Source: Periplaneta americana
Taxonomy: Eukaryota; Arthropoda; Insecta; Blattodea; Blattidae
NCBI RefSeq assembly: GCF_040183065.1
Contig: NC_091119.1
Span: forward strand, 67,024,892-67,088,891
DNA length: 64,000 nucleotides
Direction: 5' to 3'
The translations under genes and the position numbers were made by a program. Below the pieces are notes generated by a model. The model was not told the DNA's origin. It saw nothing but the letters and a program-made list of their open reading frames with translations, and ran no database searches. Of the stretch, positions 24,471-59,076 are shown piece by piece; within the stretch, counting starts at the first letter, position 1; every line of letters starts with the position of its first letter.

Positions 24471-24477
24471 GAAGCTG

Positions 24478-27363: not shown

Positions 27364-28158
27364 CTAAAAAATGTCTCGTATTTTAGGGTCTTTTGTACTT
27401 GTTATATAACTTTGTGGTATTGTAACAGCTTGTCTGCTGGTTACTGTTGCTAGAATGGAATAAAGCCTCTTTTTGACTACAAGTAACAGTTCTGTATCCA
27501 AAATAGGACAAGTTCTTGGTGTCTTTTGACTGGCAGTGGAATGAAATGGTGCCTCTTGAGCTCTTTGAGGAGGAAGTGGAGCATTCATGTACGCAGCATA
27601 ACAAGATAAGAGTACTCTGCACACAAGTGAAGCACTTGATTCACAAGTCATGAATTTATTAGTGTGTGTTTCTGTGAGTGAGTTATATAGCAAGATGAGC
27701 AGCACTGTCGTAAGACACATCATGTTCTGAGATACAGTGGACAAGCCACAAAATGGCAGTTGGTCCTGCCACACTGCGATATCTAGAGTTTCGAGCACGG
27801 AGGAATCATTCTCTACTTCACTCAACAGTACTTCCACAATGTTGCTCTGAGCGATATCATCTCTGAGGTATTCAAATGACACAGCCTGAGGGGAAATTTT
27901 GAATTTTACAATACCAGACTGAACATGAGAGCCAAGCTCAAGAATTCTATAAAAGAACACCCATTTCTTGGCACTAGGCTGTATGGACACAGCACTCTGA
28001 TGCTGCAACCACACGTCAAGGCCCACCTCCCAGTCCTCTACTGGGCAAACTGGTTTAAATGTCGCAATAAGGTGTGTCAGGGAGCTCTGAGTTGAAGATT
28101 CGGCCATATCAGTGGCTGTGAATCTTCGTAAAATGGGCACAGCAGTTGAAGAATGAAC
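27364..28158 (-). CDS. FANCA: FANCA terminal coding exon j
   Basis: Acceptor TTATTTGTATTGTAG. 265 codons including the stop. Leucine-rich and helical throughout ([50 protein letters not shown]). Close to the end, [20 protein letters not shown] mirrors human [20 protein letters not shown], which supports the C-terminal placement. Less conserved than the earlier exons, as in other FANCA proteins. Confidence 0.85.
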   Translation of the reverse strand, partial: VHSSTAVPILRRFTATDMAESSTQSSLTHLIATFKPVCPVEDWEVGLDVWLQHQSAVSIQPSAKKWVFFYRILELGSHVQSGIVKFKISPQAVSFEYLRDDIAQSNIVEVLLSEVENDSSVLETLDIAVWQDQLPFCGLSTVSQNMMCLTTVLLILLYNSLTETHTNKFMTCESSASLVCRVLLSCYAAYMNAPLPPQRAQEAPFHSTASQKTPRTCPILDTELLLVVKKRLYSILATVTSRQAVTIPQSYITSTKDPKIRDIF

Positions 28159-31100
28159 CTACAATACAAATAAAAACAAAATTAAAAACTTATACACAGT
28201 AAGAGAAAAATAAAGAATAAAGAGAGAGAGAATGGTGGTTTAAGGATAAAGAATTGGATGTCTACAATTTTACAGTAACACCCATTATTATTAAAATATT
28301 CTTTTAAGATTTTTTAATACAGTAAAACCTCGATAAGATGCGCTCGCTTATTACGCTATCCCGTGTAATACACTTTTTTTTTGTCCGGTTCCTGAACATT
28401 TCATAGATAACACCTTTATAAAATACCCTGTTTGTTGCACTGAAGTCCTGCATAATATGCTATTTTTGTGGAATATTTTTTATGTAATTTAGAGCAATGT
28501 ACTGTAACAGCAATGAAACATTTTGACCATTGAACTTACTGGTGTCATTAACCTGAAAAGTATTGGTATTCGACCCTTTACCTGCACATTTAAACGTTCA
28601 TACTATACAATACGCCACCCTCTTGTTACGCTCTCTTATTTGACACTTTACTTGTGCGCTTAAAGCTTACATACAGTTACAATACCCGACCCTCTTGCTA
28701 ACCCTCTCTCTCAAACAATGTTCCTCAGTCGACCGTAATAAAATTCTGAAAATTTTTGCTGGTCAGTTAGTTGTTCTTTAGTGTATTGAAGTGTCTGTGA
28801 GTGGGATTACAATAAGTGTTAAACGAAAAGCGCTTTCTGTGTCGGGAAAATTGGAAATCTTACGAAAGTATGATGAAAACAGTACTCTTAATCAGAAACA
28901 ACTGTCTAATTCATTAGGAATTCCATCATCGATAGTAAGAATGATAATAAAAAATCGCGACTCAATCACTGCAGCTGCGACATCGGGAGGGTGTAAGCGC
29001 AAGAGAGTGAAGTGTGGCAAACATAGGACTTGGAGAACACGCACACGGCAAACAACTATAAATGACTCTTTTCGAAAGAATTAAGTACAGTACATACATA
29101 CAGTATTATAGTCTTTGACGTACAGTGCAGTAATTACACAATGGAGTAATACTGTATTACTTTTCATGAATCATGTATTTCAATAAAGAAAAATGCTAAT
29201 AGATGCTGTATATAGGTCAAAATTAGTATACCCGCCTAATACATGGTCCCTTGAACAGCGTCTTATTGGGGTTTTACTGTATGATCAGATTCTGCGTCTT
29301 TCAAAAAGGTGATGATAAATATACAGTTAACAGTTACTTCTTTCATGGTGCAATGATCGTAAGACTATTATAGACTGACAGTAAGTTGTTATGGAAGAGA
29401 AAACCTCCAGTGGCGAAGCTCTTAAGAAGCTTTCGAGGCTTAGCCTACCCAAAAAATTTGAGTTATTATATCTAGTAACAGTATAACTTCGTAGAAACGA
29501 TATATTGTAACACTTGATTTCACTCCGATCCTTCCATATATTTAATTCACTGTTGGCAGTTCCAGGATTAAGAGTTCAGTGCGAGAGGCTTGTGGCAGAA
29601 GCCTCATAGCGACGGCCTCGCTCACAGACAGCACTCGCAAGCTTGAGGGAAGGCCAGGGTGGAGGGAGTATTGATTTGCTACTACTCAATAGTAGGAAAT
29701 GTGGCGCGATATAATACGCCACACTATATTGATGTTCCGTAAATGTGCTACATTGTTGAGTGTTAGTTTAATCAAAAATGCATGTGTGTGTGTGTGTTAC
29801 ATACTAATTTTGTGTTAAAAAATCTAAAAGGATTTTCAGTGAAATAAACGTAAGTGAACAAGACTTCATGTCCGTCACACTCTTAATCTATGAAATCTTG
29901 GACACACTGACTATACAAGTGGAAACGCGTTTTGGAGATGGTGAAAGATAAAATTTGTTAGATTTCTAGATAAAAATAGCTTTGTGGGATATAAACTAAA
30001 CTGATGAAATTACATAACCTTCTGTCCACATATCTATTTTTCAACAAAGAAAGATTAGAAAATGAATTGGCTTTTCTATAGCACATGACACTGAAACTTC
30101 CAACTTGCATTTTTCTAAGTTCTACAGTGCAGATATCTGCGACAGATTAGGTTAGGTTATTTTAGGCTTTTCGTATGTCTTGCATATACGAATCTGTCAA
30201 GGTTAGATTAAGTTAGTTTAAGCTTTTGGTATGCCTTGCATACACGAATCTGTAACAGGTTGGGTTAGGTTAGTTTAGGCTTTTGGTATGTCTTGCATGA
30301 AGTGAAATGCGCATTTCGCGTTCATTTTGAAGTGTTCTATCTCTTTATTTCACGTGTTAAATAATCACTTTTAGGTTACCTACATCGATTAATTCTTACC
30401 AACCTTCACCTATTTTCTAATATGTTTTCAAGTCAACTCACGTCCTACATGAATTCTTCATATTCCAAACTACCTTCCCTCTGGAAATTAGACCATTTTT
30501 CCACTTTTTTTCGTAAAAAAAAGTCAGTGTCACGTGCTATTCAAACCATGTATAAAAAGGTAACACAACTTGTGAAATTGATCTTGACATTCTCCGGTAC
30601 TACAGCTTTTCCCCGATAAGAGTAAAAAAATTATCTTCGTAATTCAATGAAGAATGAAAAATTAAGTTGTCTCAGTACAATTGTCACTGAAAAAAAACTG
30701 GTTACACAACTTTCTATTGACCAGAGTTTCATGGAAAGAGTAACTGACACTCTTGCAACCAAGAAGAATCGACTCCTGGATCTTCTGTATAAAAAAATAT
30801 AAGGTAAGCAAATTTTTTCAGCCTATCCAGTATTTATACCTTAGCTCGCCATTGGTTTACAGTGATCCGCAACTTACACAGAAACAATTGACGAGATGTG
30901 CATGCACTGTCTTCTAGTTCAACTCACCCTGATTGCAATAGTAAGGGATGGACAACTCTCAAACAGAACAGAAAATAAGCGCCGTGCTCTATCAATGGAT
31001 GCAGATTTCTGTGTTATACTCAGGCCTATTAAGAGATAGTGAAGCAAGCCTTGATTCAGGAATCCATTGTAGTCACTCAAGACATCCTTCTGTAAAAGAA

Positions 31101-34100
31101 AAAAAAAAAAAGCAATGATAACAGGAATGATGAAGGTAAAACCGTTTCTAGCCAAATTAAAAATATATTTATTAAGGAACACAAAAATGTATGATAGGTA
31201 TGATAAGGTTACATGAAAGCAGTAGGTTTTCTTAGAAGAAGTCTAAAGCCATGGTTGCTCCTTTGAGTATCGCAGCCGTCACTTTATCATCTGTGCAGAT
31301 TCTATGCCCCTTCAGAGCTTGTCTGAACAAATGAAAGTCACATGGTAACAAATCGGGGCTATAAGCTAGACGGCCAAGAACCTTTTGCTATTAAGAAGTG
31401 AATCACAGCCCGTCTTTGTCGAATATTGCAATCCAAAAGGAACTTTTAGCTCAAATTACTGAATGCCACTTCTTTCACAATGACATTATTGATAGGTTTG
31501 CTCCCTAAACGATAGACCTGATCTACAAAAAAAAAAAAAAAAGGTGAGTTATGCATGTCTGACTTACTAATTTACCAATATTTAATTTTTAAAAAAGTAG
31601 TGATTTTTTTTTTATTGTTATTTATTTTTTTTTTTGCATATAAGTACCTCTTCACTTACTATTTCAGACACGAGCCGTCATTTCTATATATCAACTTCAA
31701 TTCAAATAATGTGTTTAGAATTTTCTTCCATTTTCTACAAAAAAAAAAGTGTAGAATTTTCTTCCATTTTCTACAGAACCCATAAATAAAATTAAGAGAG
31801 AAAAAAAATCAATTAAAAATACGCAAAGCTCTAACTTATTATTGTTCCTGCACAACCACTGAATGAATGCAGCATCTGTTAATTTAAGCTAAAGAGTCCC
31901 CTTTAATCACATACTTAAGGTACGGCCACACGTCGCTACTTTTGCTGCGCAACTTTTGTACTGCAGCTGCAAAAGTTGCATGTCGTGTTCACACGTAAGC
32001 CAAAAGTAGCGCGCTGCACACTACTTTTCGTGCTGCGCAACCCGAGTGCAGCAAAAGTTGCAACTGGAGGTTGCGAGTCTGTTCACACACAAGGCGCTAC
32101 TTTTGCAGTCGCAGTCTTGCTGCAAGTTTCCAGGTCCATGTTGACTTCTCAATATACATTTTGTGGTTATGTTCGCATTATTATGAAACTCATGTGATAG
32201 CTTACTTATCTATTATTTGCTTTTCTGTCCTAACTAGTATTCAGAAATTGGCATTAGTTTTACTATAAAGCTTTTAAAAACGCCTATATACTTAAATGAT
32301 AATCAACAGCATATTCACGTAATCAATGTTGGCAACCCTCCTATTTGAAACTACGCTACAGAAAATTAAAAAAATGAATCACGAAAATAGTCAGACTGTG
32401 TTGTGCATTTAGTAACTGTTACAAATAATTTATTTTCATCACATCTAACATTAAAATATATCCAAACAATAAAAGTATCATTGCCACATTTGGATGGCAA
32501 CACTGATCGCAACCACAGCAAAATTTTCAACACAACTGACATCAAAAATGCTACGGCTGCAACCCTGAGAACCCTGTTCACATGTCACTACTTCTAAGCT
32601 GGTGCAGCATGAAAAAGTAGCGGACAGCATGTTCGGCAGCCCTACTTTTGGGTTGCAACGTTGTTCACACGTCGCAGTATGAGAGTTGCGCAGTTTTTTT
32701 GTACTGCAGCACTGTAAAAGTAGTGACGTGTGACCGTACCTTTAGGTACTATCACTAAAAAATCTGGTGATTAATAACTGAATGCGATAAATACTTATCA
32801 GAAAATGACGCACTTCTTGTGGTCTGTGCACTTATGAGTATATGTATAAACCAACTATTGGAACATTATTTTTGGTTCCTGTTAACGATGTGCTGGCATT
32901 TTTATAGAAACACAGCAGTTTGATTACATTTTAAATTAATTTAAAATTAAATGAAAACAGGACAAAATGGAACTTTAGATCACACTGACAGGATGGCCAA
33001 ACAGTATTATAAACAGGACATATGATCATCCTACAGCTCATAGGATCTATACATGGGGTCCTTTTTATCTAGTGATTTGCTGCTCTTCACAGGGATTGAA
33101 CCAGAGAATTTTGGGTCATGAAGTAAGTACGGTAACCAACATTCCACTGATTTACAAGTGAAATTCCATTAACTGAACATGATTTTGCCCTATGCTGCTG
33201 TTGTTTGGAATCAAAGCATACAGACTCACCAGGCGAGAGTTCACAAGTCTTGCAAGGATTTGTATTGTGTGCTCAGAAGGATCACTGTAGCACAAGTTGC
33301 TGAACATAAGCCATGGAGGCAGAGATGATGCAATTCTGTAAAGCAAGTAACACAATTTAGAGAGGCTCAAACAGATACATTTACAAGATTTAAACTTGAA
33401 ATTCGTGCTTCAATAGCCATTGATAGTCAATACTTGCAACTATCAATGTGTTATTTGTTGTTTTCAAATGCTTTCGGATATAGACTAGACTGTACTACAT
33501 TACTCCGACATTTTTTTTTCTTCCTAATGCCGTGAATAATGACGTGCGCCCATTTGCACTTATGTCTATTTTTCGCGAATTATGATGGAGAATTCTTTTC
33601 TGAGGTTGGGGCATCCACTAGGTCCATTAGCTCAGTATGATTGGTAGAATAACATATGAGCATGAAAGTAGGCAGGATGGAAGAAGATAAAGGTGAGGAC
33701 GGCAAAATGAACCCAGGGTCCAGCACCGAAGGCTAACCCACATTTGCTCTTAAATGGTTAAGGGAAAACCTTGGGAAAAACCTCAATCAGGCAACTTGTC
33801 CCAACAGGATTCGATCCTGGGCTTGCTAGTTTCGCAGTCAGACATACTGGCCACTACTTCAAAGCAGTGGATAGACTCATATCTTGAACTTACTAGGGTC
33901 ATGCTGGATTCCAGGTAGGAGCCTAATAAAGAAAAGTTTGTGAGAACCAAAATTTACTACCTTTAGAAATAAGGCAGTTTTTACGTTAAAATGGAATAAT
34001 TTAATTGAAAACAGTTCAGAATTACATATAATTCAATATTTAATCTTTTATATATTTCCATTTATTGTTTTTCTCAATTAGTTAATGGCAGTAGCATGAC

Positions 34101-34408: not shown

Positions 34409-34467
<59 letters not shown>

Positions 34468-37400
34468 TTATAATAACAACAACAACAATAATAATAATAA
34501 TAATGACAACTTAAAACTTCTGCTATATAATGTTACAGAAGCAACAGAAATAACAATCATAACATAATGATAATATAGAGATACAACTATATTATTAAAT
34601 TGGAAAACTAGTCCTTTCAGTGCGTATGTGGACAATGTATCCTTTGTATTAGTAAATGCAAAGTTTCAAAACTAGTGAACTCATTTGAATGGATAACAGT
34701 TAACGAATTTCTTGCAGCAAAGTATAAATGTTTACTTTATTAAAAACCTAAACTTTAGATCCTTAATTGTGAAAAACTATATTTTGCAGATAACTATCAC
34801 TAGCATCTCGAAACTGACTAATTCGAAAAATTGCATTTTCCAAAATTTTCTCTGATTTTATGATGACAACTCACGAATCGCATTACAATGTAATCTTCCA
34901 GAACTTCAATTTGTTGTAGGTTTTTTCCTCTATACATTTTCCTTGAGAAAACTCCAGAAAGTTTTGTTAAGTTTCTTGTGGAAATATGATTCTCTGCCAG
35001 GACAAGGAACTATTTGCATACTGAAGTCTATGATAGTCAGAAGGCACGTTTTTATAGAAACTTTCAACTACTCAATAGTCACAAGTTATCTCTGACCCTG
35101 AAGTGCCTGTACTATTATACAGCGACTATTTTCGAGTTAATTTTACTATAAAAATGAAAATAGACGTCAGTTCGTTAATTTCGTTTCCTAGGAGATTTAT
35201 TAGATGACTAGCCATACCCGTGTGCTCTGCTGCACCCGTTAGGAATAAATATAGAGTAATTACATAATTAAAATAGGACATTTGATCTAGGGAACATTCG
35301 TGTTTGATTGAAGAATAAATCGTTTAATATGTTACTTAATTCAAATTGTATTTAAATAATTAAAATGCGATCATTTTGGTCCAGAGATCACTCATTTAGT
35401 GCAATGACAATTCCTTTAACATGTTTCTTAATTGTTATTACATGCAACCATAGTTTAATGAACATTGACATCATTTAGATTCAATGTGTATACTTTATTT
35501 TACTTGCTATATGTCGTAATGGTACTTTTGAAATGTTTGTAATTTTTACTACTACAATTAATGTTAAAAACAAATAAGAAGCAAGTAATGTGGAAGCTCC
35601 GGTTTCAGGTTCAATGATTTTGGCTTCCATTGAATTATGGTAATAACTTAATTTTAACCCTTGTTTTCTACGTCTTCAGTAAATGGCGCTTGGCCCACTA
35701 TAGTTCTGAACCCTTCAAATAACTTAAATAGTGATACAGCATACAGTATATAGTGATATGTAATTATATTTCTTTCTTTCGAAAATGTAAGAATTCACGA
35801 TCTCCTATGTACCATTGCCATGGAATGAATAAGTGTGTTTTTCTTCCTACTCAAAAATATTATATTTTACACATAGGAGTTACTGTAGGAACAACAACGC
35901 TATAATCTGAGACGGTGGTGAAAATATATTATATTGTTATTTTAAAAGTCTTTTATATCCTTTATTCGATATTACTTCATACAAACACAGAAATATTTCC
36001 TCTAGGCTATGTTTGATAGCTTTCGTTTGTTGTTGTTCAAGGCCCCTTATAGACGAAATCATTTGTTTTTTATTTCATTACAGCGCCTTAGATGGCGTTG
36101 TTATATACATTTTAAAACTCATTTATCTCATTAAATATCAGTCCTATCAAAATTTTGCATAGAATAAAACTTATCGGAAATAATATTTTAAAAAACTTTT
36201 GTTATGTAACATTTTTCACAAAAATTAATAATAAGGGAGATATTTCGATTTATTTAATTCAAGCCCCCTTATAACCCCCCTTTTAAATAAAGTATTTTGA
36301 ATGCCATAAAGCCTAAAATCTAAGTTACAACGAACTTAATTTATATTCCAATTTTCATATAAATCAGTTCAGCCATTATTGCGTGAAAAGGTAACAAACA
36401 TCCAGACAGACAGACATACAAACAACAATTTCAAAAAAGCGATTTTCGGTTTCAGGATGGTTAATTATACATGTTAACACCAATTATTTTTGGAAAATCG
36501 AAAATTACCAGAAAAATTTTGGCTACAGATTTATTATTAGTATAGATATGGTACCCACTGTAATGCTATTTTCTTCCCTGCTTTTATAAGTTGTCTGATA
36601 AGCTTACATATTTCCAATACTTTGTTATTTTAAGGCATTTTGTTTGAATGGTTCGATCTCGCAGTATTTGAATTGGTTTACTTAAAAAAATTTCTTCGGT
36701 ATTATTACTACATACAAATAAAAAATTAATGTCACATCCCACTCCATGGACAGTATTCAAACCAATTCCACAGCATTATTTAAATACTGATCGTTAAATA
36801 TCGAGTTTAGACAACTTTCAAGATAAAAACGTGTGTCGTCGGTCCTAAATGTTTCTGAAATTGTTTAGACTCAACAATAATTTTTATTCCAATGTGCAGG
36901 TACAACACTTCATTTATTTTCTTAGAGAACATAACACAAATGCGCATTACAACCTGCAGTGAACTACTATGAATTGACTGAGTTCAAAGCAGATAAAGAG
37001 CAAAATTAAAATTGAGAATGTTAAACAACACAAGTGATACCTGAAAAATGAAATATCACTGACAACATCGGACTTGTCTCGGAGAGTTAGCCATTCATGA
37101 AGCAACCAGGGCAGCGACTTTGCAGGTGGTTCAATAGGGTAAGTTTCTAGCAGACTTGTCAACACTTTCATCATATCCCTATGGAAGTTCTGCCACGAGT
37201 GTACTGTGAGGAGTGAAGCACTGTCCTACAAAGAGAATTAAAATCACATACATTGCAGAATTAAACCAAACAGCTATTTTAAAAAATAACAAATATTAAC
37301 TGGTACAAAACAATTGAGACTCAAACATCACTCACACAAACACAAAAATAACTGAAAGTTTATAAGTCAGCTGAGTTAGCTCTGTGGTAGCGTGTCTGCC

Positions 37401-49400: not shown

Positions 49401-52400
49401 ACACAATGGCTTTTTCACTTCTCCTGAACTAGTTCTAAAATGCCAAAGCAGTGTTCATTAATATTTTTCTACATACAAAGCAATTTTCGTTAATTTGATC
49501 GTAATTTCATTACTGCTATTTGATCATACTATATGTTTAAATTAGACATAAAATATCAATAAAATTTGAAAGTGTCACCTTCCTTTCAAAGGTGGAAAAA
49601 CATTTATAAGTTAAAAATAGGCTACTAATAATGATACTTTTGTAGAACAGGACAAATAAAACGTTATTTGTAACTAATATGTAGGCTATTGAGTAATAAA
49701 ACACAAGTCTACAATAAGTGTTTGTGGAATAGAAATTTTCTGATTTGTATGAGTTACAAATTCACTTATAAAGTACTGCTTCTTACTTTTGTGAAACAAA
49801 TCTTTAGTATGTTTGAATCTGGTATTAATGCATTTGGAACTTAAATGTGAAAAGTAAATGTGTCATTACTCACCTTAGCTTTAGCCATTGGAAGTTCTTG
49901 TATGCAGCTTTGGAAAATCTTACGAAACAAAACTATTTTCAAGTTTCGAAATGGCTGGAACACATCAACAAAATGTGCCGGCCAAATGAGATTCAACATT
50001 TGGGATACAGAAGAGTAGCAATCTATGAAGGTATCAATGAGCATCTCAACTGTCTGTAACATAACACCATACTGCTGTTAATCATTAATAAGACAAATAA
50101 CTTTACAGAAAGACTGCACTAAACAATTACCATTAATATTTACATCTTCTTAATTAATTTTATGGAAAACACATTTAACCAATGTTGCTTCGCAGTGTCT
50201 ACCACGATTAAATCTCTTGAAGATCATAGCTAATAAGGAATGAGGATCAGATATCACGACAATGCGTCTGTTTTTTATTTAAACATTATTGCTTATACAC
50301 GATCAAAATGGAAGGGTTCAGAGACATGGCGAGCCAAGCGCCATTTATTAAAAACGAAGAAAACAAGGGTTAAAATTAAGTAAATACCATAATTTAATGA
50401 AGATTGACATATCATTTAATTTTAAAGTGCATACTTTATCTTACTTGCTATACGTTTCGTTAAATTATGGTAACCATTTAACTGTAACCCTCGTTTTCTC
50501 CGTTTTTAATAAATGGCGCTTGGTCCACTATGACTCTGAACCCTTAAACTGACCCATGGGTGTGAAAAATGGGGAGGAGCATCAGCAACTCATCTACAAA
50601 AAATTTCTGTTCTTCAAAACTCAGCCTTAAGATTATGCCTAGGAGTACCAAAAACCACATCAACTGTTGCCTGGAAATTGAATGTAATATTCAACCAATC
50701 AGACACTATGTATTAAAATAGGGTCTAAAATACATTTAAAATTGCAAGCTTCATCCAGATCTCATTAAATTCTTCAAACTATCAGATAATATCCTGTGTA
50801 ATTTCTATAAAATAAATAAAGAATAAATACCAATCTATATCACAGACACATCATTGCTAAAACTCCAGTTGTGAGTAAAATTCGTACATGGAAATGAGTG
50901 ATTCCAGAACATAGCATACAAATTCCAGGAAATCATTCCAAAAATGATCCTCCATACATTCTTAAGTTAGATGCCATGGAACTAATCTGCAGCACATATA
51001 AGGGTCATCTTCAAATTTACACAGATGGATCTCTAAACCCTAATAATGGGACATCAGGAGCAGGGTATTACATTCCAAAATATCAAGAAAGGTACTTCAT
51101 ACTGTGACAGCTGCGTCGGGATTCGACAGGGCACGCGGGAGACGAAACGTTGGTCGCTTCGGTGTGGTGGACGTAAGGGGAATGTCTGCATCCCGAGAGG
51201 GCAAGGGGAGGTGCACTGCGGCGCGAGGCAAAGGGGGACGCAAAGCTGGTGGTGCTTCGCTGTGCGAGGTGAAGGGGGGGAGGACGAACCCTCCGGAAAA
51301 GAATCATCCAGGAAGAAGCAGTGAGAACAGAAGTCTGTAGAAGTAGAAAGTTCGAGCATCGTACTTTCTCGAAACTATGGTTTGGCTATAAAATACAACA
51401 CGCGAGTGAACTTGAGCAGTTGTTGTTGTAGTCGTTGGACAGCAAGCCAGCCAGTCTTGTGTAGCAGTGAAGCCAGCTTCGAGACTGGAGTTCGACTTGA
51501 GTGTCTCCGCAGCTGTGTGAGTGTCCGAAGTCCTGAGTTCGAATGCAGTGGACCGCAGTTGGGGGACCTGAGTTCGAAGTTCAGTGGACTGTCTCTGAAG
51601 GTCTGGGGTTCGAGATACTGAGTGACTGAGCTAGAAGAACTAGCCAAGGAAAACGAACTGTGAACTGAGAACTGACAGTTCTGATTTGTAAATAGTGCTT
51701 TGTGAACATTAGTTAAAATTAGCAGTACATTGTTGTTCTCAATAATCCAGGTAAATTGTCATTGTCGTCTGTGGAGTGCAATAACGAATGCTGTGTTACT
51801 GTGTGGAGTGGAAATCCCATTGTTGACGGGAGTGTTTACATTCAATTATAGAAAGTGTTTATTGTTGAAACAAGAAAATTACATTATTGATTTGTAATAA
51901 AAGTTACAATACCATGTTCATCCTCCTCCAGTCTTGATACTGAATTGCTAGCTATTATGCTGCTCTTTGGTAAGTTACTACCAGAATAGAGAGTACAGTG
52001 CGAGACTTGTGGCAGAAGCCTCTAAAGGCATGGCTATGATCTTGACTCGCAAGCTTGAGGGAGGACTGGAGGGGGTATCAATTCACTACAGCTTGATACG
52101 AAACACGGCTAGCCTCATCTTCACAATAATATGTTGCGCTATGTTGGTGTTCTGTGAATGTGCTGTGTTGTTGAGTGTTAGTTTAATCAAAATTGCATTT
52201 GTGTGTGTGTGTTACATATTGATTTTGTGTAAAATGGATCATACTGAGAGAAACTGAGGTCATTATTTGTACAATTAAAAGAGAAACCATTTTCAAGTTG
52301 GACATATGAAACAAAAAGTGCTTACTAAGATAGGAGATTGACACATTTACATATTAAAATAGAGGATGGAGGAAGACAAAATATAAATTTCAAATATCAT

Positions 52401-55400
52401 GGTATAAGAAATATACTTGGCTAACAGGGTGCTCTGAAACAAATAAGTTATATTCTTATACCTGTATTCTATTTGGAGGTGAAAATGAGTGGTCATCATC
52501 TTCTTGTGGGGTCTGTGTCACAAAAAAATTTTGATAGAAAAGCCGAGAAACATCTGCTATATAACAATATATAAGGTAAGTAGATTTTCTCAGTTTACAT
52601 CTTAGCTTTGCTACTGGTGTTTATAAAAATTTGTAGCACCATAGATTTTAGCTAAAAAGATAATCTACTTATATTTTGTTCCAGATGTAGAAGCGTGATA
52701 CACACTTTTTGTTTCCATTATTTTAAAAATATATTTGCTGCTTCAATAAATGCAGACTCATATTTTGTAGCATTTAACATTTAAATCCGAGAAAAAAGTA
52801 TAGTGCTACTTTCAAAATATATCATATAAACTTCCTGAGTTACATTTTTGCTGATTTAATCACAGGTTGATAAGCAAAGCAGTAATTTTAAACATCTTAA
52901 ATTTATTTTCATTACCTGTACCCAGTGTCCAGTATCAGTGCCCATATCACCAGACATAATTTGTACACTTGCTATTGGTCTGTTTCGTTCTAGAGAAGAT
53001 TTCTTCTCTGCTTCACCTACGACGTCTTTAAGACAATGGACTACTCTGACCAAACCTTCTTTCCAACTCGAAATGTCTCCCCTCTGTGAATCCCACTGCT
53101 GGTTCATGGTCTTGAGGGATTCCAGAATCTGCTCTAGACTTTCCTCTAACTTCTGTCTTGGATCTATTGCATCCATTATCATAGTAGGACTATTTGAGAA
53201 CAAGGCGTCTGGAACATTCAACAAAGTTAAAATATTTTAAACATAATGACTACCTAGTTCATTTATTTAATAATAACATATTATACATAATAATGCTACA
53301 TGAAAGCAAAGCTCGTGTTTGAGGACAGTTCTGATTTGATAAAAAGACTTGAAAGTGAAATAATTTTTCATGATTTACAAACATATGTTTTTTCTGAATT
53401 AAAATTCAAGATTCTCATACCAGAGTATTACACAGATTACACATAATTCATAATTCTCTGTTGTTTCTAAAATAAAATTTAAAATTCTTATACTAATCTC
53501 TATCCATCATAAGAAAAAAGCAACGTAAACAAAGCTAGTAAGTATCATTCTGCAATAGTCTGTTCTGATTGGTTGATTGCTGCAGTGGTACTATTTGCAG
53601 TACAATCAGTTACAATGCCAATCTAATTATTACTTTGGACTGGATGTTATGCATTCCGCTTCCATTTGAAAAATATTACTTACTTACTTACTGGCTTTTA
53701 TGGAACCCGGAGATTCATTGCCGCCCTCACATAAGCCTGCCATTGGTCCCTATCCTGAGCAAGATTAATCCAGTCTCTACCATCATATCCTACCTCCCTC
53801 AAATCCATTTCAATATTATCTTCCCATCTATGTCTCGGCCTCCCCAAAGGTCTTTTCCCCTCTGGCCTCCCAACTAACACTCTATATACATTTCTGGATT
53901 CGTCCATACATGCTACATACCTTGGCCATCTCAAACGTCTGGATTTAATGTTCCTAATTATGTCAGGTGAAGGATACAATGCGTGCAGCTCTGCGTTGTG
54001 TAACTTTCTCCATTCTCCTTTAACTTCATCCCTCTTAGCCCCAAATATTTTCCTAAGAACCTTATTCTCAAAAACCCTCAATCTCTGTTCCTCTCTCAAA
54101 GTGAGAGTCCAAGTTTCAGAGCCATACAGAACAACCGGTAATATAACTGTTTTATAAATTCTAACTTTCAGATTTTTTGACAGCAGACTAGATGACAAAA
54201 GCTTCTCAACCGAATAATAACAGGCATTTCCCATATTTATTCTGCGTTTAATTTCCTCCCGAATGTCATTTATATTTGTTACTGTTGCTCCAAGATATTT
54301 GGATTTTTCCACCTCTTCGAAGGATAAATCTCCAACTTTTATAGTTCCATTTCGTACAATATTCTGATCACGAGACATAATCATATACTTAATCTTTTCG
54401 GGATTTACTTCCAACCCTATCTCTTTACTTGCTTCAAGTAGAATTTCCGTGTTTTCCCTAATCATTTGTGGATTTTCTCCTAACATATTCACATCATCCG
54501 CATAGACAAAAAGCTGATGTAACTGGTTCAATTGCAAACCTTCTGTGTTATCCTGAACTTTCCTAATGGCATATTCTAGAGCGAAGTTAAAAGTAAAGGC
54601 GATGAAAAATATTACAGTACATTAAATTATAGGAAATTCAATTTGATATTAATACCGTAACAAGAAATGTTTTATTCCTATAACAATATCTTCGCCTCAT
54701 GCACTCCTGCAACCACACGTCATTGCCTGTTGTTTAATTCTTCTAATATCAATATATAATGAAAGCTTGTCACAAAATGCAAAACTTACCGATGTTCTAG
54801 TTGCTGCTACTTTCACGAAGGCTTACTACCAAAACAGAATCACTATTGGAATCATTGGAAGAAGAGTCGTTTCCGATGTTAATAATTATACTGTCCACCA
54901 CATGGTCCACTTTTCAGTCAAGTTCCCAAATCCGCTACTCTTCAGAAATCACATGTCTGACATCATGTTGCCACACCTCGGCCGTGACCTCTTGTAAGGC
55001 AGCATTGACAAGCTCCCGCACTTCACGTGATTTGAACATCCAACTACTCTCTTTTCCCCCACTTCTTAATGGTTTACTTTGAGAATGTTTGATAATATCA
55101 CTCAGTCCTGCCACTGTCACTGAGACTGGATCAGCCATAATCACACAGTATTCCAGGCAAGCGATGCAACACGTGGTGCACTACCAGTACTTTTGCAAAC
55201 TGTCCATTATAAATGTGGTTACAATTATATCAGTGAATCAACCATTGTGTAAGATATTTATTTCCGTGTCACATACATTTTGAATGTATTTTTTTACTTT
55301 AGTAGGTTATTTTATGACGCTTTATCAACATCTCAGGTTATTTAGCATCTGAATGAAATGAAGGTGATAATGCCGGTGAAATGAGTCCGGGGTCCAACAT

Positions 55401-55941
55401 CGAAAGTTACCCAGCATTTGCTCAAATTGGATTGAGGGAAAACTCCAGAAAAAACCTCAACCAGGTAACTTGCCCCGACTGGCAATCGAAACCGGACCAC
55501 CTGGTTTCGCGGCTAGACGTGCTAACCGTTACTCCACAGGTATGGACTACATTTTAAATGTAGATATCTGTATGATAACAGAGACGAAACACGCTAAACA
55601 AAAGGGAACTATTTTCTTCGAGAGTATTGTAGGTGATATGGTCAGGCACCAATCATAGTACTTCTAACCATGTGCTTCTATTTACGTTGCTTTTTTCTTA
55701 TGATGAATGGAGATTAGGATCACATGCTTAAGAAGACTGGACAGACAAAAACATACATAAATCACAAATATACATACTTTGTAGACTAACGTTTAAATAC
55801 CAGGATAAGATATTTAACAAGTACACTACATTAAGGTGAAAATAATAAAATTAATAACAATAATACCAGTAATAAGTGAGACAATCTATACCACAATTTT
55901 AGAGTGATGATGAGATTGGTGATCCTATATTATTATTGTTA

Positions 55942-56013
<72 letters not shown>

Positions 56014-57457
56014 GAGTAACTAGTAGCAAATCATGTTGATATAGTAGCAATGATAAGATTGAGAGAAATAATATATTTAGGGAAGAAGTAAACTTGCTTT
56101 ACAATATATGCTACATTTAAACTAAGGAAGTCTGTCATATGAGCTGTTTAATTCTGGATTTGAAAATTCAATTGCTTAAAGTAGCCAATTCTGGATGAAA
56201 TTTTATTATCGAATTATACAGACGTGACTGGGAGGAGTGATAGTAGGAGGAAGAACAATAAAGTGCATAAGATTTGCTGATGATATGGCATTGTTAGCAG
56301 AAGAGGAAATGATACTAAACAATATGCTACTGGAGCTAAATGACAGCTGTGCGCAGTATGAGATGAAGATAAATATAAATAAGACGAAGACCATGGTCAT
56401 TTGGGGTGTACTATAAGCAGTAACATAAGCTGCAGCCAGGAAGTCAAAAGAAGGACAGCAATGGCCAAGGAAGCTTTTAATAGAAAAAGGAGCATTTTCT
56501 GCGGATCTCTGGAAAAAGAACTAAGGAAGATACTAGTGAAGTGTTTTGTATGGAGTGTGGCATTGTATGGGGCAGAAAAACATGGACATTACGACGAAGT
56601 GAAGAGAAGTGAATAGAAGGATTTGAAATGTGGATATGGAGAAGAATGGAACGTGTGAAGTGGACAAACAGAATAAGAAATGAAGCTGTGTTGGAAAGAG
56701 TGGGTGAAGAAGGAATGATGCTGAAACTGATCAGGAAGAGGAAAAGGAATTGGTTGGGTCGCTGGTTGAGAAGAAACTGCCTAGTGAAGGATGCACTGGA
56801 AGGAATGGTGAACGGGAGAAGAGTTTGGGGTAGAAGAAGATATCAGGTGATAGACGACATTAAGATATATGGACCATATGAGGAAACGAAGAAGAAGGCA
56901 GAAAATAGGAAAGCTTGGAGAAAGCTGGGTTTGCAGTGAAATACCTGTCCTTGGACAGAACACTAAATGAATGAATAGACGTGGACCATAATTTATATTA
57001 TGTAGTAGAGCAGCAGATGTGAAGCATTTAGGTTCAACTAAAATAAGAATTTCATTTCGTCTTGTATGAGAGTCATGGCAACTATTTTTTTCAGCGGAAT
57101 CCCAGACCGCGATTCACATTTGTCGATATACAGCAATGACATTGAGATGTATCATACTTATTGATGCCACTAGATGGTGTAGATGTTCAATGACAGAAGA
57201 GGAAGGGATGCGCAAAAATCAGTTGATTTTCAATCATTGTCAAGTATGGATGTCAGTCAGCTAGAACAATGTGCGTATGTAAAAATAGCGTATGACATTC
57301 GAGGAATTCTTTTGTGTCATTTTGTTCCCCATGATCAGACTGGCAGCGGCGGTGGTGGTGGGGGGTTGGTAGTGGTTGTGGTGGTGGCAGCGGGGGCAGT
57401 GGTGGTGGCAGGGGGGGGCAGTGGCGGTGCCAGTGGCAGTGATATGATGATGACGAC

Positions 57458-57494
<37 letters not shown>

Positions 57495-59076
57495 AGAGTC
57501 CAGATTTTTATGTAATTATATTATTTTTTTCCTTAGTATGTATCTTTCTGAAAACTCAAAATGTTGGCGAAATAGGCTACTAAGATAATTATATTTAATT
57601 TTAATACCACATATTTCTTACATATTTTTACACAAAATTAACATCCAAGCCAAATGTATTTTAATTAAACGTCTTGTAAAGAAAATTGTTAATATTTAAG
57701 CATAAACTAAAATGAAATTATAAAAATATTTATACAATTTCAAATGCAAAGTTTTCAATACATAAAGACTTAATGAGATACATACTTCATCATTCAGGAC
57801 AGGACAACCACTCAGGTGTAATTTCGCATTTCCCTGCTAATCCTGCTGTCTTGCACTTTGTCCTCAACTCTGGAAAAATCTTGGTGATCTACAGGACTCA
57901 CTACATAATAACTTATGTCATTGCACTGCTTGAATGCGGCTCAAATTTTATCTTTGTGATTTGTTAGCTGGGGTTTACAGTGAAATAGAGAAATACGAGT
58001 ATTTAGAGTATTTCCTGGAATTGGAAAAGGTATATTTTATTACACAGGACCTTTTATTACATTATTCACTTGACTGCTTCGCAACATCTGTTACAGAATT
58101 CTAAAATTGTGTATGAGTTGCAACTGCAACTTCAGCTGGATTTCCAAAAGCATCGAAAAATGGAAACTATCGGACTTTCACTCATGATATTGGTGGACAT
58201 CATCTGTGACGCAAAGAATAAACTCAGTGTTGTCCGTGGAACTGCAAATAAACAAGTCGAAAAAAAATTCGTAGCAGTCCTTGAACGAAATCAGGGTTAC
58301 ACCAGTTTATTTACTGTTAATCAGATCCTCAGTGGAGAAATGCGGAATATTCCAAAAGTCATAGGCATTTGTTTAAATATGCGATGTTGAGAGATCGTTT
58401 TCGGTGTATAAGAACATGCTGTCTGATCACCGACGAAACTTAAATCCTGAAAATATGGAGAAATATCTTTTGGCACATTGTACTTCATGCCTTGATTAAT
58501 TTTAGAATCGCACTAAAATCTAACTATCGAGACATACCATATATAAATACGTAATTTGTATGAAATTAATCTTCTTATTCATCTTTATTTAAAATAAAAC
58601 TATTTTTTTAACAAAATAATTTTTAACTCATTATGCAATTTTGACATTACATATTTAGTACATATTTCGAAGTTTTCACTTATATATTTATGTACATATT
58701 TTTAGGGTCAATATTAGTACATAAAAATCTGGACTCTAATGATGATCTGATGAAACCCAATCACACTGCTTAATCCTAAGTTTAAGTGTATGAATTCAAA
58801 TTCCAGACCTTGGATAACTCTAGCTTCAGACAGACATGCCTCTTGGTATCTGTTGAATGTGCTGTGAGAGATCTTTCCCATGCTATGCAGCTTCCCAATG
58901 AATCTGGCCCTTGTGTCTGGAATGTCTGGAAGCACACGTGGGGTGAGTAACTTGCCAACAAACTCCTGTTCAAAGTGCTGGCGACGGAACACAGAGGCAT
59001 CCAGCAGTATCTGTGCCACCTCCCCATTGTGAGTTTCAAAGTATTTCAGTGCAAACTCTATGTCTTGTTCCGTATT
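27364..59076 (-). CDS. FANCA: FANCA, Fanconi anaemia core-complex protein (10 C-terminal coding exons)
   Basis: FANCA scaffolds the nuclear Fanconi core complex that ubiquitinates FANCD2-FANCI at DNA interstrand crosslinks. Ten exons (59076-58809, 53208-52916, 50053-49874, 47507-47353, 46726-46447, 42325-42137, 37225-37041, 33335-33230, 31089-30928, 28158-27364) have AG/GT borders and phases that agree at every junction, giving 2,613 bases including the stop, about 870 residues. Human FANCA has close to the same length from the matching point to its C-terminus. Diagnostic resemblance (recalled, not aligned by program): [18 protein letters not shown] against human [32 protein letters not shown] against [14 protein letters not shown], and LARLVNSRL against FFHLVNSEM. 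The protein is mostly alpha-helical. The first roughly 580 residues are not in the window. No internal stops, so probably functional. Introns reach 5.6 kb and are full of transposons. Confidence 0.9.
28320..29279 (+). mobile_element. Tigger/pogo deletion derivative with intact ends
   Basis: Inverted ends CAGTAAAACCTCGATAAGA and (complement) CAGTAAAACCCCAATAAGA with TA on each side. Lies in the last FANCA intron. 960 bp against about 2.4 kb for typical Tigger elements. Encodes only the HTH frame below. Confidence 0.9.
28791..29084 (+). pseudogene. Tigger transposase reduced to its DNA-binding N-terminus
   Basis: 97 codons in one open frame. [19 protein letters not shown], then [20 protein letters not shown] form the CENP-B N-terminal-type helix-turn-helix of pogo/Tigger transposases, followed by a basic KRKRVKCGK patch that could serve nuclear import. 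It then jumps to [12 protein letters not shown], the usual transposase C-terminus. The CENP-B second DNA-binding half and the DDE domain are absent. No ATG: the first codon in the expected place is GTG, so translation is doubtful unless a spliced or upstream start exists. Confidence 0.75.
29410..30850. mobile_element. hAT-like non-autonomous element, copy 1
   Basis: Ends CAGTGGCGAAGCTC and, inverted, CAATGGCGAGCTAAGG. It shares two blocks with 51,988-52,630: the left-hand block (GGCTTGTGGCAGAAGCCTC; GTTGAGTGTTAGTTTAATCA) and the right end (ATATAAGGTAAG, then TTAGCT). No transposase frame and no convincing 8-bp duplication. Confidence 0.6.
30135..30300. repeat. Three tandem units of about 57 bp with TTAGG-like motifs
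   Basis: Each unit runs through GGTTAGGTTAGTTTAGGC-like sequence, CTTTTGGTATGTCTTGCAT and ACGAATCTGT. Two units contain (TTAGG)2-like stretches, the insect telomere repeat. Confidence 0.85.
30928..31089 (-). CDS. FANCA: FANCA exon i
   Basis: Acceptor TTTTTTTCTTTTACAG, perfect donor AGG/GTGAGT. 54 codons: [20 protein letters not shown] and [16 protein letters not shown], corresponding to human LTQDITAHFFRGLLNACL and CQTKCPLILTSAL. Confidence 0.87.
31917..32742. mobile_element. MITE with long inverted repeats and internal sub-repeats
   Basis: Left end AAGGTACGGCCACACGTCGC and right end its near complement; similarity continues inward with TACTTTTGCTGC and TACTGCAGC. Sub-repeats of the type GCAACTTTTGTACTGCAGC recur in both orientations across the first and last 200 bp. 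No coding. Target duplication not resolved. Confidence 0.75.
33230..33335 (-). CDS. FANCA: FANCA exon h
   Basis: Acceptor TTACTTGCTTTACAG, perfect donor CTG/GTGAGT. Short exon (106 bases) encoding [18 protein letters not shown] and [10 protein letters not shown], aligned with human LPSSVLCGSSF and FFHLVNSEM. Confidence 0.87.
33650..33880 (-). repeat. SINE family A copy
   Basis: AACCCAGGGTCCAGCACCGA, GGAAAAACCTCAATCAGG, GGATTCGATCCTGG, then a decayed head. Confidence 0.85.
33885..35200. other. Intron sequence, no gene seen; (AAT)n microsatellite at 34,410-34,504
   Basis: AT-rich, with AAT units interrupted by ATAACAACAACAACA. No other motif. Confidence 0.5.
35207..36548 (+). mobile_element. 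Dispersed repeat R, copy 2
   Basis: CTAGCCATACCCGTGTGCTC at the start and GGCTACAGATTTATTATTAG, TATAGAT at the end, as in copy 1. Its middle (about 35,412-35,965) differs from copy 1 and contains a relic of the foldback family found at 50,312-50,545 (GTAAATGGCGCTTGGCCCAC). Confidence 0.8.
37041..37225 (-). CDS. FANCA: FANCA exon g
   Basis: Acceptor AATTCTCTTTGTAG, donor TTTCAG/GTATCA. Encodes [28 protein letters not shown] and [17 protein letters not shown], the position of human DIISRLQEMVADLELQ. Carries two bases over. Confidence 0.85.
37373..37505 (+). repeat. SINE family C, head portion
   Basis: CTCTGTGGTAGCGTGTCTGC and GGTTCGATTCCCGGC, then the start of the body (TAATCACTAAATTGTGCACC), as in the complement of 20,118-20,487. 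Confidence 0.85.
37510..38550. other. Intron sequence; unclassified repeat-like stretch and (CA)n
   Basis: 37,780-38,070 is less AT-rich and may be an unrecognised SINE or element end. (CA)n at 38,072-38,098. 38,130-38,510 is also GC-richer and non-coding. No family assigned. Confidence 0.35.
38556..38765 (-). repeat. SINE family A copy
   Basis: GGCGAAATGAGTCCGAGGTC, GTAACTTGTTCCAACCAGGA, TTTGAACCTGGG, ending in TTCCACAGTGGTGG. Confidence 0.88.
39299..39372 (-). repeat. tRNA-like SINE head
   Basis: Minus strand: CCCCTTAGCTCAGTTGAAAG then GGTTCAAATCCTCGTC, an A box and B box about 45 bp apart. The stem pairing is too poor for a working tRNA. A second, weaker tRNA-like stretch is at about 39,835-39,900. 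Confidence 0.6.
39400..39556 (+). pseudogene. Tc1-type transposase C-terminus
   Basis: [20 protein letters not shown] and then [19 protein letters not shown] before a stop, the standard end of Tc1 transposases (SMPxRLxxVIxxxGGxTxY). There is one stop between the two parts. Confidence 0.8.
40407..41082 (-). mobile_element. Tigger/pogo-like derivative with TA duplication
   Basis: Ends CAGTAGAACCTCTATTATCT and (complement) CAGTAGAACCCCAATTTTCC, TA outside both. The minus strand around 40,859-40,712 keeps a helix-turn-helix start ([34 protein letters not shown]). A homopolymer A run after the first residues puts the start and the HTH in different frames. Confidence 0.85.
41195..41435 (+). pseudogene. 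LINE family delta, 3' end
   Basis: Encodes [14 protein letters not shown], then [12 protein letters not shown] and a stop, with an ATGATGATGA tail: the usual C-terminus of an arthropod LINE ORF2. 5'-truncated. Confidence 0.8.
41600..41875 (+). pseudogene. Mariner-like transposase N-terminal fragment
   Basis: [36 protein letters not shown], then [14 protein letters not shown], with one stop between the second and third parts. This is the N-terminal helix-turn-helix of a common arthropod IS630/mariner family (usual form: FIETKSVTQVQRxFRxxYG ... FxETGxVxxKKxxGRP). Confidence 0.75.
42137..42325 (-). CDS. FANCA: FANCA exon f
   Basis: The acceptor tract is an extraordinary T run then CCCCCATTTTTCAG. 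Perfect donor GAT/GTAAGT. 63 codons encoding [19 protein letters not shown] and [16 protein letters not shown], matching the human [20 protein letters not shown] and ILVNALMDF. The T run (about 20) is an unstable microsatellite inside the splice acceptor. Confidence 0.9.
42543..43508. mobile_element. MITE with 25-bp inverted repeats
   Basis: CATGGATGAATATATAATAG with GATGC at the left, and the complement of CATGGATGAATATATAATTA with GGATGC at the right. AGTGT lies just outside both ends. 966 bp, non-coding, in the intron immediately 5' of FANCA exon f. Confidence 0.75.
43635..44661 (-). mobile_element. Tc1/mariner-superfamily transposon with complete ends
   Basis: 37-bp inverted repeats (CAGTGTGTCCGCAGAAACAT and CAGTGTGTTCGCAGAAACAT), continuing to GGTTATAAACTG, with TA outside both. 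1,027 bp. Holds the catalytic half of the transposase only. Confidence 0.93.
43960..44350 (-). pseudogene. Transposase catalytic domain of the 43.6-kb mariner element
   Basis: Minus strand: [17 protein letters not shown] (first catalytic Asp, about 44,350), one stop, then the open frame 44,268-43,960 with [37 protein letters not shown] (second Asp) and WPPRSPD (start of the third). The N-terminal DNA-binding part is missing, so the copy could not be autonomous. Confidence 0.85.
45020..45305 (+). repeat. SINE family D
   Basis: CTCAATGGCGAATAGCTAGA, GGTTCGAATCCTGGAGGGG, then an unrelated body (TTTTCTTGGGTTACTCCCGT; AACCACAAGCTTTGGCACAT) ending before an A-rich run. Only copy in the window. Confidence 0.8.
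45362..46083 (+). mobile_element. hAT deletion derivative
   Basis: Inverted ends CCAGGATTTAAGCCACAGTC and CCAGGATTTAAGCTAGAAAA, each followed by AAAAATGC sub-terminal repeats. At about 45,650-45,760 it keeps the hAT C-terminal dimerisation signature [17 protein letters not shown] in a broken frame. Confidence 0.78.
46090..46440. other. Intron sequence, no feature seen
   Basis: No frame or repeat recognised. Confidence 0.4.
46447..46726 (-). CDS. FANCA: FANCA exon e
   Basis: Acceptor TTATTGGTTACAG, donor GCAGAG/GTAGTA. Encodes [17 protein letters not shown] (human KFCTAAISYSLCKFSS) and [15 protein letters not shown] (human LIKKFQFLMFRLFSEA). The stretch between them is a Ser/Asn/Thr-rich loop. 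Confidence 0.88.
47115..47315. repeat. SINE family B body fused to a LINE alpha 3' end
   Basis: 47,115-47,265 matches the complement of the family B body (GAGGACTCGCCATAGACCAC; GGGGAAAACCTCGGAAG). 47,268-47,315 is the LINE alpha terminus on the plus strand (TATGTGAGGGCAGCAATGAA, encoding [11 protein letters not shown] then stop), the same end that closes the 53.7-kb copy. Confidence 0.7.
47353..47507 (-). CDS. FANCA: FANCA exon d
   Basis: Acceptor ACTGTGTTTCAG, donor TTACAG/GTGATA. Encodes [20 protein letters not shown] (human counterpart LGLAALAVHLGE) and WEMEECYR, leaving two bases for the next exon. Confidence 0.85.
47510..48445. other. Intron sequence, no gene seen
   Basis: Short (CAT)n and (ATT)n microsatellites near 48,000-48,040 and 48,135-48,165. 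Otherwise AT-rich. Confidence 0.45.
48449..49391 (+). mobile_element. Tc1/mariner-superfamily transposon with complete ends, decayed transposase
   Basis: Inverted repeats of about 75 bp (CTGTGTCACTGAAAATTATT left; CTGGGTCAGCGAAAATGGTT right), both continuing to ACTTAATGGATATACA, with TA outside. The transposase relic reads [14 protein letters not shown], then FFFNDNI and YLDMLEHHVF, with stops after. Same catalytic family as the element at 43,635, but with different termini. The N-terminal third is missing. Confidence 0.88.
49874..50053 (-). CDS. FANCA: FANCA exon c
   Basis: Acceptor GTGTTATGTTACAG, perfect donor AAG/GTGAGT, phase 0 at both ends, 60 codons. Encodes [20 protein letters not shown] and [18 protein letters not shown], matching the place of human AVDLLLTSFCQNLMAAS and CQLLRHQG. 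Confidence 0.85.
50312..50545. mobile_element. Foldback element of 234 bp
   Basis: Nearly all of it is two arms of about 88 bp (AAGGGTTCAGAGACATGGCG left; complement AAGGGTTCAGAGTCATAGTG), meeting at CCAAGCGCCATTTATTAAAA and onward, with a short AT-rich loop. A relic of the family is embedded in repeat R copy 2. Confidence 0.85.
50570..51985 (+). pseudogene. LINE (I/R1/Jockey-type) RNase H region, split by a solo LTR
   Basis: About 50,600-50,700 encodes [18 protein letters not shown], the segment after the reverse transcriptase in I-group LINEs. 50,898-51,102 encodes the RNase H start [19 protein letters not shown] with the first catalytic Asp. The next conserved block, DTELLAI with its Glu, follows the LTR insertion at about 51,945. 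Strongly 5'- and 3'-truncated. Confidence 0.78.
51103..51908 (+). mobile_element. Solo LTR of an LTR retrotransposon (Gypsy-like), fossil
   Basis: 806 bp beginning TGTGACAG and ending GTTACA, bordered by the direct repeat ATAC (51,099-51,102 and 51,909-51,912). GC-richer than its surroundings. TATAAAAT at about 51,386 could be the promoter box and AATAAA at about 51,897 the polyadenylation signal, in the right order. No internal region or second LTR: the usual product of LTR-LTR recombination. The short duplication is still perfect, so it is not very old. Family is inferred from the termini alone. Confidence 0.8.
51988..52630. mobile_element. hAT-like non-autonomous element, copy 2 (partial)
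   Basis: Shares GCAGAAGCCTC, CTCGCAAGCTTGAGGGA, GTTGAGTGTTAGTTTAATCA and the right end (ATATATAAGGTAAG, CTTAGCTTTGCTACTGG) with 29,410-30,850. The left terminus is missing. Confidence 0.6.
52916..53208 (-). CDS. FANCA: FANCA exon b
   Basis: Acceptor GTTGAATGTTCCAG, donor GTACAG/GTAATG. Encodes [18 protein letters not shown] and [13 protein letters not shown], corresponding to the human segment with a Gln/Leu-rich helix followed by ISKIQLSINTPR. 293 bases: two complete a split codon from exon a, the rest are whole codons. Confidence 0.85.
53672..54598 (-). pseudogene. LINE family alpha (RTE-like), reverse-transcriptase C-terminal two-thirds of a domain plus 3' end
   Basis: The longest LINE frame in the window: 279 codons open on the minus strand (54,537-53,698) and extending upstream in frame to about 54,595 ([16 protein letters not shown]). 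Contains the catalytic [52 protein letters not shown] and [19 protein letters not shown], ending [11 protein letters not shown]. The 3' end is followed by a (TAAG)n tail, as expected of target-primed insertion. 5'-truncated before the RT core, so inactive but evidently recent. Lies in the 5.6-kb FANCA intron. Confidence 0.92.
54935..55150 (-). pseudogene. Tc1/mariner-type transposase C-terminal fragment
   Basis: [20 protein letters not shown] leads to [20 protein letters not shown] and [15 protein letters not shown], then a stop. The same frame past two stops gives [19 protein letters not shown]. The FKxxxVRELVxxALxEVT ... W ... HV pattern suits the tail of an IS630/Tc family. It lies between FANCA exons a and b, but the phases of those exons join without it, so it is intronic, not FANCA. 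Confidence 0.45.
55289..55548 (-). repeat. SINE family A, full length with target-site duplication
   Basis: Complement of the family A consensus from tail (GACGCTTTATCAACATCTCA) to head (CTAACCGTTACTCCACAGG). A 14-bp repeat ACATTTTGAATGTA / ACATTTTAAATGTA flanks it with one mismatch. Confidence 0.92.
55550..56220. other. Intron sequence with (ATT)n at 55,930-56,013
   Basis: No gene or other repeat recognised. Confidence 0.6.
56225..56965 (+). pseudogene. LINE family gamma (Jockey/CR1-like), RT C-terminal part and 3' end
   Basis: Catalytic [15 protein letters not shown] at about 56,270-56,315, then [20 protein letters not shown] in another frame (56,401-56,616), [11 protein letters not shown], and the open frame 56,628-56,939 with [31 protein letters not shown] and [11 protein letters not shown]. 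Ends in an (AATG)n tail. 5'-truncated, with about two frame breaks. Confidence 0.88.
57183..57345 (+). pseudogene. Mariner-like transposase remnant (start joined to catalytic region)
   Basis: [17 protein letters not shown] resembles the N-terminal helix of a known IS630-type family (usual LEQRAYVKIA), then [12 protein letters not shown] resembles its catalytic-domain segment. The middle is deleted. The frame runs into a GGT/ATG-rich microsatellite. Confidence 0.5.
57345..57493. repeat. (GGT)n-like and (ATG)n microsatellite
   Basis: A GTG/GGC-rich stretch followed by ATG units. The final ATGATGAT is the left target duplication of the next element. Confidence 0.93.
57494..58738 (+). mobile_element. 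hAT transposon with perfect 8-bp target duplication
   Basis: 21-bp identical inverted repeats TAGAGTCCAGATTTTTATGT(A), flanked by ATGATGAT on both sides (57,486-57,493 and 58,739-58,746). Sub-terminal ACATATTT motifs recur at both ends. 1,245 bp, carrying only the transposase C-terminus. The right end is about 70 bp from the FANCA exon a donor. Confidence 0.95.
58070..58497 (+). pseudogene. hAT transposase C-terminal part
   Basis: 58,070-58,387 encodes [39 protein letters not shown] and [13 protein letters not shown]. After one stop and a frame change, 58,386-58,497 encodes [28 protein letters not shown] and a stop, the hAT dimerisation signature. BED finger and catalytic core are absent. 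Confidence 0.82.
58809..59076 (-). CDS. FANCA: FANCA exon a (first in window)
   Basis: Acceptor TTGTTTGATGTTTCAG, then AATACGG (phase 0). Encodes [32 protein letters not shown], the hallmark [18 protein letters not shown] and [14 protein letters not shown]. Human FANCA has [17 protein letters not shown] and YCQAC in the same order. The donor is CCAAG/GTCTGG, a weak site chosen because its phase (one base carried over) fits the next exon exactly. The hAT element at 57,494-58,738 ends only about 70 bp past this donor. Confidence 0.9.

What the first reader, a model, noticed from the sequence alone, without database searches (positions are those of the whole stretch)
27364..59076. A FANCA gene in an insect, with intact splice structure
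Ten exons with agreeing phases give about 870 residues that follow human FANCA in order, including [18 protein letters not shown]. Flies lack FANCA, and the Fanconi core complex is generally reduced in insects, so an intact-looking copy suggests that this lineage keeps more of the core complex. The identification rests on recalled human sequence.
Basis: partly seen in the sequence, partly recalled or inferred. Interest (0 to 1): 0.75.

Follow-up and report, generated by a model that had tools for sequence, protein, structure and literature searches.

The report
Insect gene for repair protein FANCA
This stretch holds the larger, rear part of an intact-looking insect copy of FANCA, a DNA cross-link repair gene that is often broken in people with Fanconi anaemia; the gene is of a known kind, but finding it in an insect with its old intron layout is a useful correction to the idea that insects have lost it.

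Summary
Ten minus-strand exons lie at 59076-27364 with AG/GT borders, agreeing phases and 870 codons plus a stop. They match FANCA_helical and FANCA_arcN above Pfam's cut-offs and human FANCA (E 1.1e-13). The gene outruns the window: four upstream exons join in phase, giving 1131 residues and Fanconi_A_N at E 2.8e-45; three more likely exons extend that match to positions 4-353 of 355. Of 13 introns, 8 fall on the same nucleotide and phase as human FANCA introns and 12 lie within 8 residues in phase; the human list is recalled, three entries confirmed in papers. So this is a vertically inherited FANCA ortholog. Limits: the last exon (264 residues) has no FANCA signal of its own; FANCA_CTD was not found; no expression evidence; species unnamed; start codon not found. 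FANCL, the ligase subunit, is also in the genome. FANCC, FANCE and FAAP100 gave no match in insensitive searches, so 'keeps more of the core complex' is only partly shown. A new member of a known kind.

The parts
58809..59076 (-).
   Evidence: human 549-625, z 33; exit border = human c.1900 (recalled)
52916..53208 (-). FANCA exon 2, start of arcN; phase 1 in, 0 out
   Evidence: exit border one residue from human c.2151
49874..50053 (-). FANCA exon 3, arcN; phase 0/0
   Evidence: exit border 8 residues from human c.2316 (recalled)
47353..47507 (-). FANCA exon 4, arcN; phase 0 in, 2 out
   Evidence: exit border = human c.2504 (recalled)
46447..46726 (-). FANCA exon 5, end of arcN; phase 2 in, 0 out
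   Evidence: exit border = human c.2778
42137..42325 (-). FANCA exon 6; phase 0/0
   Evidence: local match to human 927-946, not significant alone (z 1.4); exit border has no human counterpart
37041..37225 (-). FANCA exon 7; phase 0 in, 2 out
   Evidence: exit border = human c.3239 (recalled)
33230..33335 (-). FANCA exon 8; phase 2 in, 0 out
   Evidence: exit border = human c.3348
30928..31089 (-). FANCA exon 9; phase 0/0
   Evidence: with exon 8 and the start of exon 10 aligns to Xenopus FANCA, z 2.6-3.5, not to human; exit border = human c.3513 (recalled)
27364..28158 (-). Terminal exon 10 with stop codon, 264 residues; no FANCA sequence signal of its own
   Evidence: structure prediction uninformative

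Best explanation
The ten exons are the rear part of an insect FANCA ortholog inherited vertically from the animal ancestor. The 14-exon chain spans about 58 kb (C3:67052255-67110382); with three likely further exons it is about 84 kb (to 67136704). Shown: the open, phase-consistent exon chain, three FANCA-only Pfam domains in order, and shared intron positions. Inferred: that it is transcribed and makes a large helical scaffold protein which, as in vertebrates, belongs to the Fanconi core complex and helps the FANCL ubiquitin ligase, also found in this genome, to mark FANCD2-FANCI at DNA cross-links. The C-terminal domain has diverged beyond recognition by sequence and is read from one long last exon.
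For: Pfam on the 1131-residue 14-exon model: Fanconi_A_N 155.7 bits (E 2.8e-45), FANCA_helical 71.5, FANCA_arcN 36.6, all above cut-off and in order; with three more upstream exons Fanconi_A_N covers 4-353 of 355, 166.7 bits. PDB: human FANCA E 1.1e-13, Xenopus 2.7e-11. Profile alignment with human plus Xenopus FANCA: local, model 8-1107 to human 281-1422, E 3.9e-31; global, which forces the ends, E 3.6e-39. Of 13 introns, 8 match a human intron exactly in nucleotide and phase and 12 lie within 8 residues in the same phase; 0 of 200,000 random sets did as well on either count. Human c.2151, c.2778 and c.3348/3349 borders confirmed in papers. The Fanconi_A_N search of the genome gave three matches, all at this locus. 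FANCL RING exons on C6.
Against: Exon 10 has no pairwise or Pfam signal and FANCA_CTD has no match in the genome. Exons 2-10 have no significant pairwise signal singly (z -1.3 to 2.2), and the 8-to-10 stretch that matches Xenopus does not match human. The junction between exons 6 and 7 has no human counterpart. The human intron list was recalled after I had seen the insect borders; only three of its entries were checked. FANCC, FANCE and FAAP100 gave no match. No expression data. No start codon found; part of the front is not modelled.
Confidence: 0.92

Rival explanations
1. An intact-looking but unused FANCA relic, losing function slowly.
For: C-terminal domain unrecognisable; FANCC, FANCE, FAAP100 not found; a reverse transcriptase piece sits in an intron, though that is common in large genomes.
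Against: 1131 codons across 14 exons without a stop or phase break; three domains well conserved. A neutral copy in 14 pieces over about 58 kb would be expected to break.
Confidence: 0.05
2. A FANCA gene whose real 3' end differs: exons 1-9 are FANCA but the 264-residue last exon belongs to another gene, or the true last exons lie elsewhere.
For: No FANCA signal in exon 10; human FANCA uses several exons there (recalled).
Against: Acceptor in phase with a 264-codon open frame directly following, entry border on human c.3513 (recalled); no Pfam family fits it.
Confidence: 0.12
3. A different helical protein that only resembles FANCA.
For: Weak pairwise similarity outside exon 1; a few other Pfam families appear, but only below their cut-offs.
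Against: Three FANCA-specific Pfam families and shared intron positions.
Confidence: 0.01

Closest known systems
Human FANCA (PDB 7kzp)
   Same: Domain order N-terminal, helical, arcN; motif around LLTPRVLP; 8 of 13 introns at the same nucleotide and phase by a recalled human list
   Different: Little similarity outside the N-terminal and helical parts; C-terminal domain not recognisable; the last 264 residues in one exon
Xenopus FANCA (PDB 6lhs)
   Same: Helical domain match E 2.7e-11; weak collinear match of model residues 517-617 (870-residue numbering) to about 1051-1152 of the partial chain used
   Different: As for human
Reduced arthropod Fanconi pathway as described with Drosophila (PMC11061109, passages)
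   Same: FANCL present here too
   Different: The passages seen list no FANCA for Drosophila; this genome has it

Membership tests
FANCA | Fanconi_A_N domain (PF15865) | tested here: met
   155.7 bits, cut-off 27; 166.7 bits over 4-353/355 with added exons; it lies upstream of the window
FANCA | FANCA_helical domain (PF24781) | tested here: met
   70.7 bits, cut-off 28
FANCA | FANCA_arcN subdomain (PF24783) | tested here: met
   37.2 bits, cut-off 27.2
FANCA | FANCA_CTD (PF03511) | tested here: inconclusive
   No match in the model at E 10 or the genome at E 0.001, 19 candidates scored; no control genome rang and an exon-wise search is insensitive
FANCA | Gene structure shared with vertebrate FANCA | tested here: met
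   8 of 13 introns exact, 12 of 13 near; human list recalled, three borders confirmed in papers, of which two are exact and one is a residue off
FANCA | Assembly with FANCG/FAAP20 and the core complex | not testable with these tools
   No interaction data
Fanconi core complex in this genome | FANCL present | tested here: met
   C6:105863925-105864032 (45.2 bits) and 105870529-105870618 (29.3 bits), cut-off 27.3; the other 21 of 23 matches are under it
Fanconi core complex in this genome | FANCC, FANCE, FAAP100 present | tested here: inconclusive
   No match at E 10; control genomes uninformative
Fanconi core complex in this genome | FANCB, FANCF, FANCG, FAAP20 present | not tested
   FANCF search did not complete; FANCB, FANCG, FAAP20 not sent

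The most novel reading that the evidence does not exclude
This insect runs a reduced core complex in which FANCA, with a remodelled C-terminal domain, serves FANCL without recognisable FANCC, FANCE or FAAP100, a middle stage between the full vertebrate complex and the fly's minimal one.
Probability: 0.2. Interest if true: 0.6.

Novelty: new member of a known kind. Interest (0 to 1): 0.42.

Why it matters
A FANCA that kept ancestral intron positions agrees with the gene having been present in the common ancestor of insects and vertebrates, so that its absence from flies, if real, is a later loss. It points to an insect in which FANCA's role can be tested outside the vertebrate setting, and gives a distant sequence for judging which FANCA surfaces are essential: the C-terminal domain, where patient point mutations are said to cluster (PMC7102982, start of abstract in the listing), is the least conserved part here.

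Tried and rejected
Chance open frames: rejected by domain scores and intron positions. Other copies: the Fanconi_A_N search found only this locus, with six candidates scored; the same check with FANCA_helical was sent four times and never answered. Structure of exon 10: folded alone without relatives, mean pLDDT 36.1, useless, so no fold search was made. A scan of viral contigs with exon 1: 22 pattern hits, none a relative. Single-exon alignments: only exon 1 was strong. Below-cut-off Pfam hits on the exons (DUF1673, DUF5089 and others) and the S100-A13 chain in the PDB search (E 0.85) were taken as chance.

Papers: six of the ten searches paired Fanconi or FANCA with animal or evolution terms and four sought human splice borders (one search found none). 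I saw 15 of 29, 2 of 2, 20 of 593, 4 of 4, 15 of 1,460 and 5 of 7,997 rows of the first six. In these rows no title was of a study of insect FANCA. Passage searches in PMC3388349, PMC7933650, PMC4723128 and PMC8372062 gave no usable border. The library is partial and no insect sequence database is on hand, so I do not claim that insect FANCA is unreported; annotated entries may well exist (recall, unchecked).

Full report
What was checked. They lie on the minus strand from 59076 to 27364, have AG acceptors and GT donors, agree in phase at all nine junctions and give 870 residues ending in a stop. I located the borders by hand with phase in mind, so phase agreement alone is not a strong test; the independent tests follow.

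Identity of the rear part. Pfam finds FANCA_helical (70.7 bits, cut-off 28) and FANCA_arcN (37.2 bits, cut-off 27.2) in that order; the third family listed, DUF1673, is far below its cut-off. The best solved-structure match is human FANCA, residues 549-701, E 1.1e-13, then Xenopus FANCA, E 2.7e-11. Taken singly, only exon 1 aligns strongly (z 33 with human, 26 with Xenopus); exons 2 to 10 have z between -1.3 and 2.2. A stretch from the start of exon 8 to the start of exon 10 aligns with Xenopus in the right place with z 2.6 to 3.5, but the same parts show nothing against human.

The gene goes on past the window. In the whole genome (G000, 3.23 Gb, 91 contigs; window = C3:67024892-67088891) the Fanconi_A_N family has three matches, all on the minus strand of C3 just upstream, in the right order: 67095641-67095925 (56.5 bits), 67103725-67103889 (17.2 bits, under the cut-off) and 67110113-67110283 (27.9 bits). 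The acceptor of the last of these is weak by my score (2.7). Pfam on this model gives Fanconi_A_N 155.7 bits, E 2.8e-45, FANCA_helical 71.5 and FANCA_arcN 36.6. Three further exons, C3:67136456-67136704, 67132744-67132817 and 67117470-67117702, are likelier than not. The first two on their own match no Pfam family; adding all three, with a spacer for a missing piece, takes Fanconi_A_N to 166.7 bits and positions 4-353 of 355. The start codon was not found.

Introns. The 14-exon model was aligned as a profile with human plus Xenopus FANCA (local E 3.9e-31, model 8-1107 to human 281-1422; global E 3.6e-39) and each of its 13 junctions was carried over to the human coding sequence; both alignments place them alike. 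Eight fall on exactly the same nucleotide and phase as a human junction (c.1083, 1225, 1900, 2504, 2778, 3239, 3348, 3513); four more have the same phase within 1 to 8 residues (c.1470, 1626, 2151, 2316); one, between exons 6 and 7, has none. Random sets of 13 positions gave 0.13 exact and 2.1 near hits on average, and none of 200,000 reached 8 exact or 12 near. The human junction list is recalled, and was written down after the insect borders were known. Papers confirm c.2778 (PMC10397729, passages), c.2151 (PMC10504672, passages) and c.3348/3349 (PMC3149625 and PMC10426286, passages); of these, two match exactly and one is a residue off. This supports exons 6-9, whose sequence alone is weak, and points to vertical descent.

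The C-terminal end. Exon 10 is one open frame of 264 codons. It has no pairwise signal, no Pfam family, and FANCA_CTD has no match in the genome (the control genomes did not ring either, so this does not show absence). A structure prediction of exon 10 alone was useless (mean pLDDT 36.1). I read it as a diverged C-terminal domain in one long exon, with a modest chance that the true 3' end differs.

Which animal. Of eight contig ends looked at, two (the end of C3 and the start of C4) carry long (TTAGG)n arrays, three were all N, and three had no array or only a trace; triple TTAGGG was not seen in any. TTAGG is the usual arthropod telomere repeat (recalled).

The rest of the pathway. FANCL_C has two neighbouring matches over the cut-off on C6, about 6.5 kb apart, among 23 listed; their reading frames show the cysteine-rich pattern of the FANCL RING (pattern recalled). 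FANCE, FAAP100 and FANCC gave no match at E up to 10. These searches look at single exons of fast-evolving families, and their controls were uninformative, so they do not show absence. FANCF and FANCD2 searches were sent but did not complete; FANCB, FANCG and FAAP20 were not searched.

How it most likely works. Shown: an intact-looking gene of the FANCA family. From established knowledge: vertebrate FANCA is a large helical scaffold of the core complex that supports FANCL in monoubiquitinating FANCD2-FANCI at cross-links. Inferred: the same job here. Not shown: transcription, protein, partners.

What is known. PMC11061109 (passages) states that arthropods have a rather depleted Fanconi repertoire, citing FANCJ, FANCL, FANCM, FANCD2 and FANCI in Drosophila. 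An insect with an intact-looking FANCA qualifies that picture. Annotated insect FANCA proteins may already exist in databases that I could not search. I rate it a new member of a known kind with moderate interest.

Noticed in passing
53698-54621, minus strand: Reverse transcriptase piece (RVT_1, 34 bits, E 3.2e-8) inside the intron between FANCA exons 1 and 2, on the gene's own strand.
   Followed up: partly
   Followed up: partly
28782-29081, plus strand: CENP-B_N-like DNA-binding frame (21.0 bits, cut-off 21.2), perhaps of a pogo/Tigger-type transposon, in the last FANCA intron, opposite strand.
   Followed up: partly
24432-25133, plus strand: All three plus frames stay open over about 640-700 bases of a short repeating unit (SLHPWLQPSEPSVYIPGF and similar): probably a minisatellite, not a gene.
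   Followed up: no
17857-18216, plus strand: A 120-residue acidic open frame (TFADALVRVIEEPEGTPDAEEGEAPRKKSNK) that looks like a coding exon of a neighbouring gene but reaches no Pfam cut-off.
   Followed up: partly
L024 and L025 (G000:C6:105863925-105870618): FANCL RING exons of the same genome, about 6.5 kb apart.
   Followed up: partly
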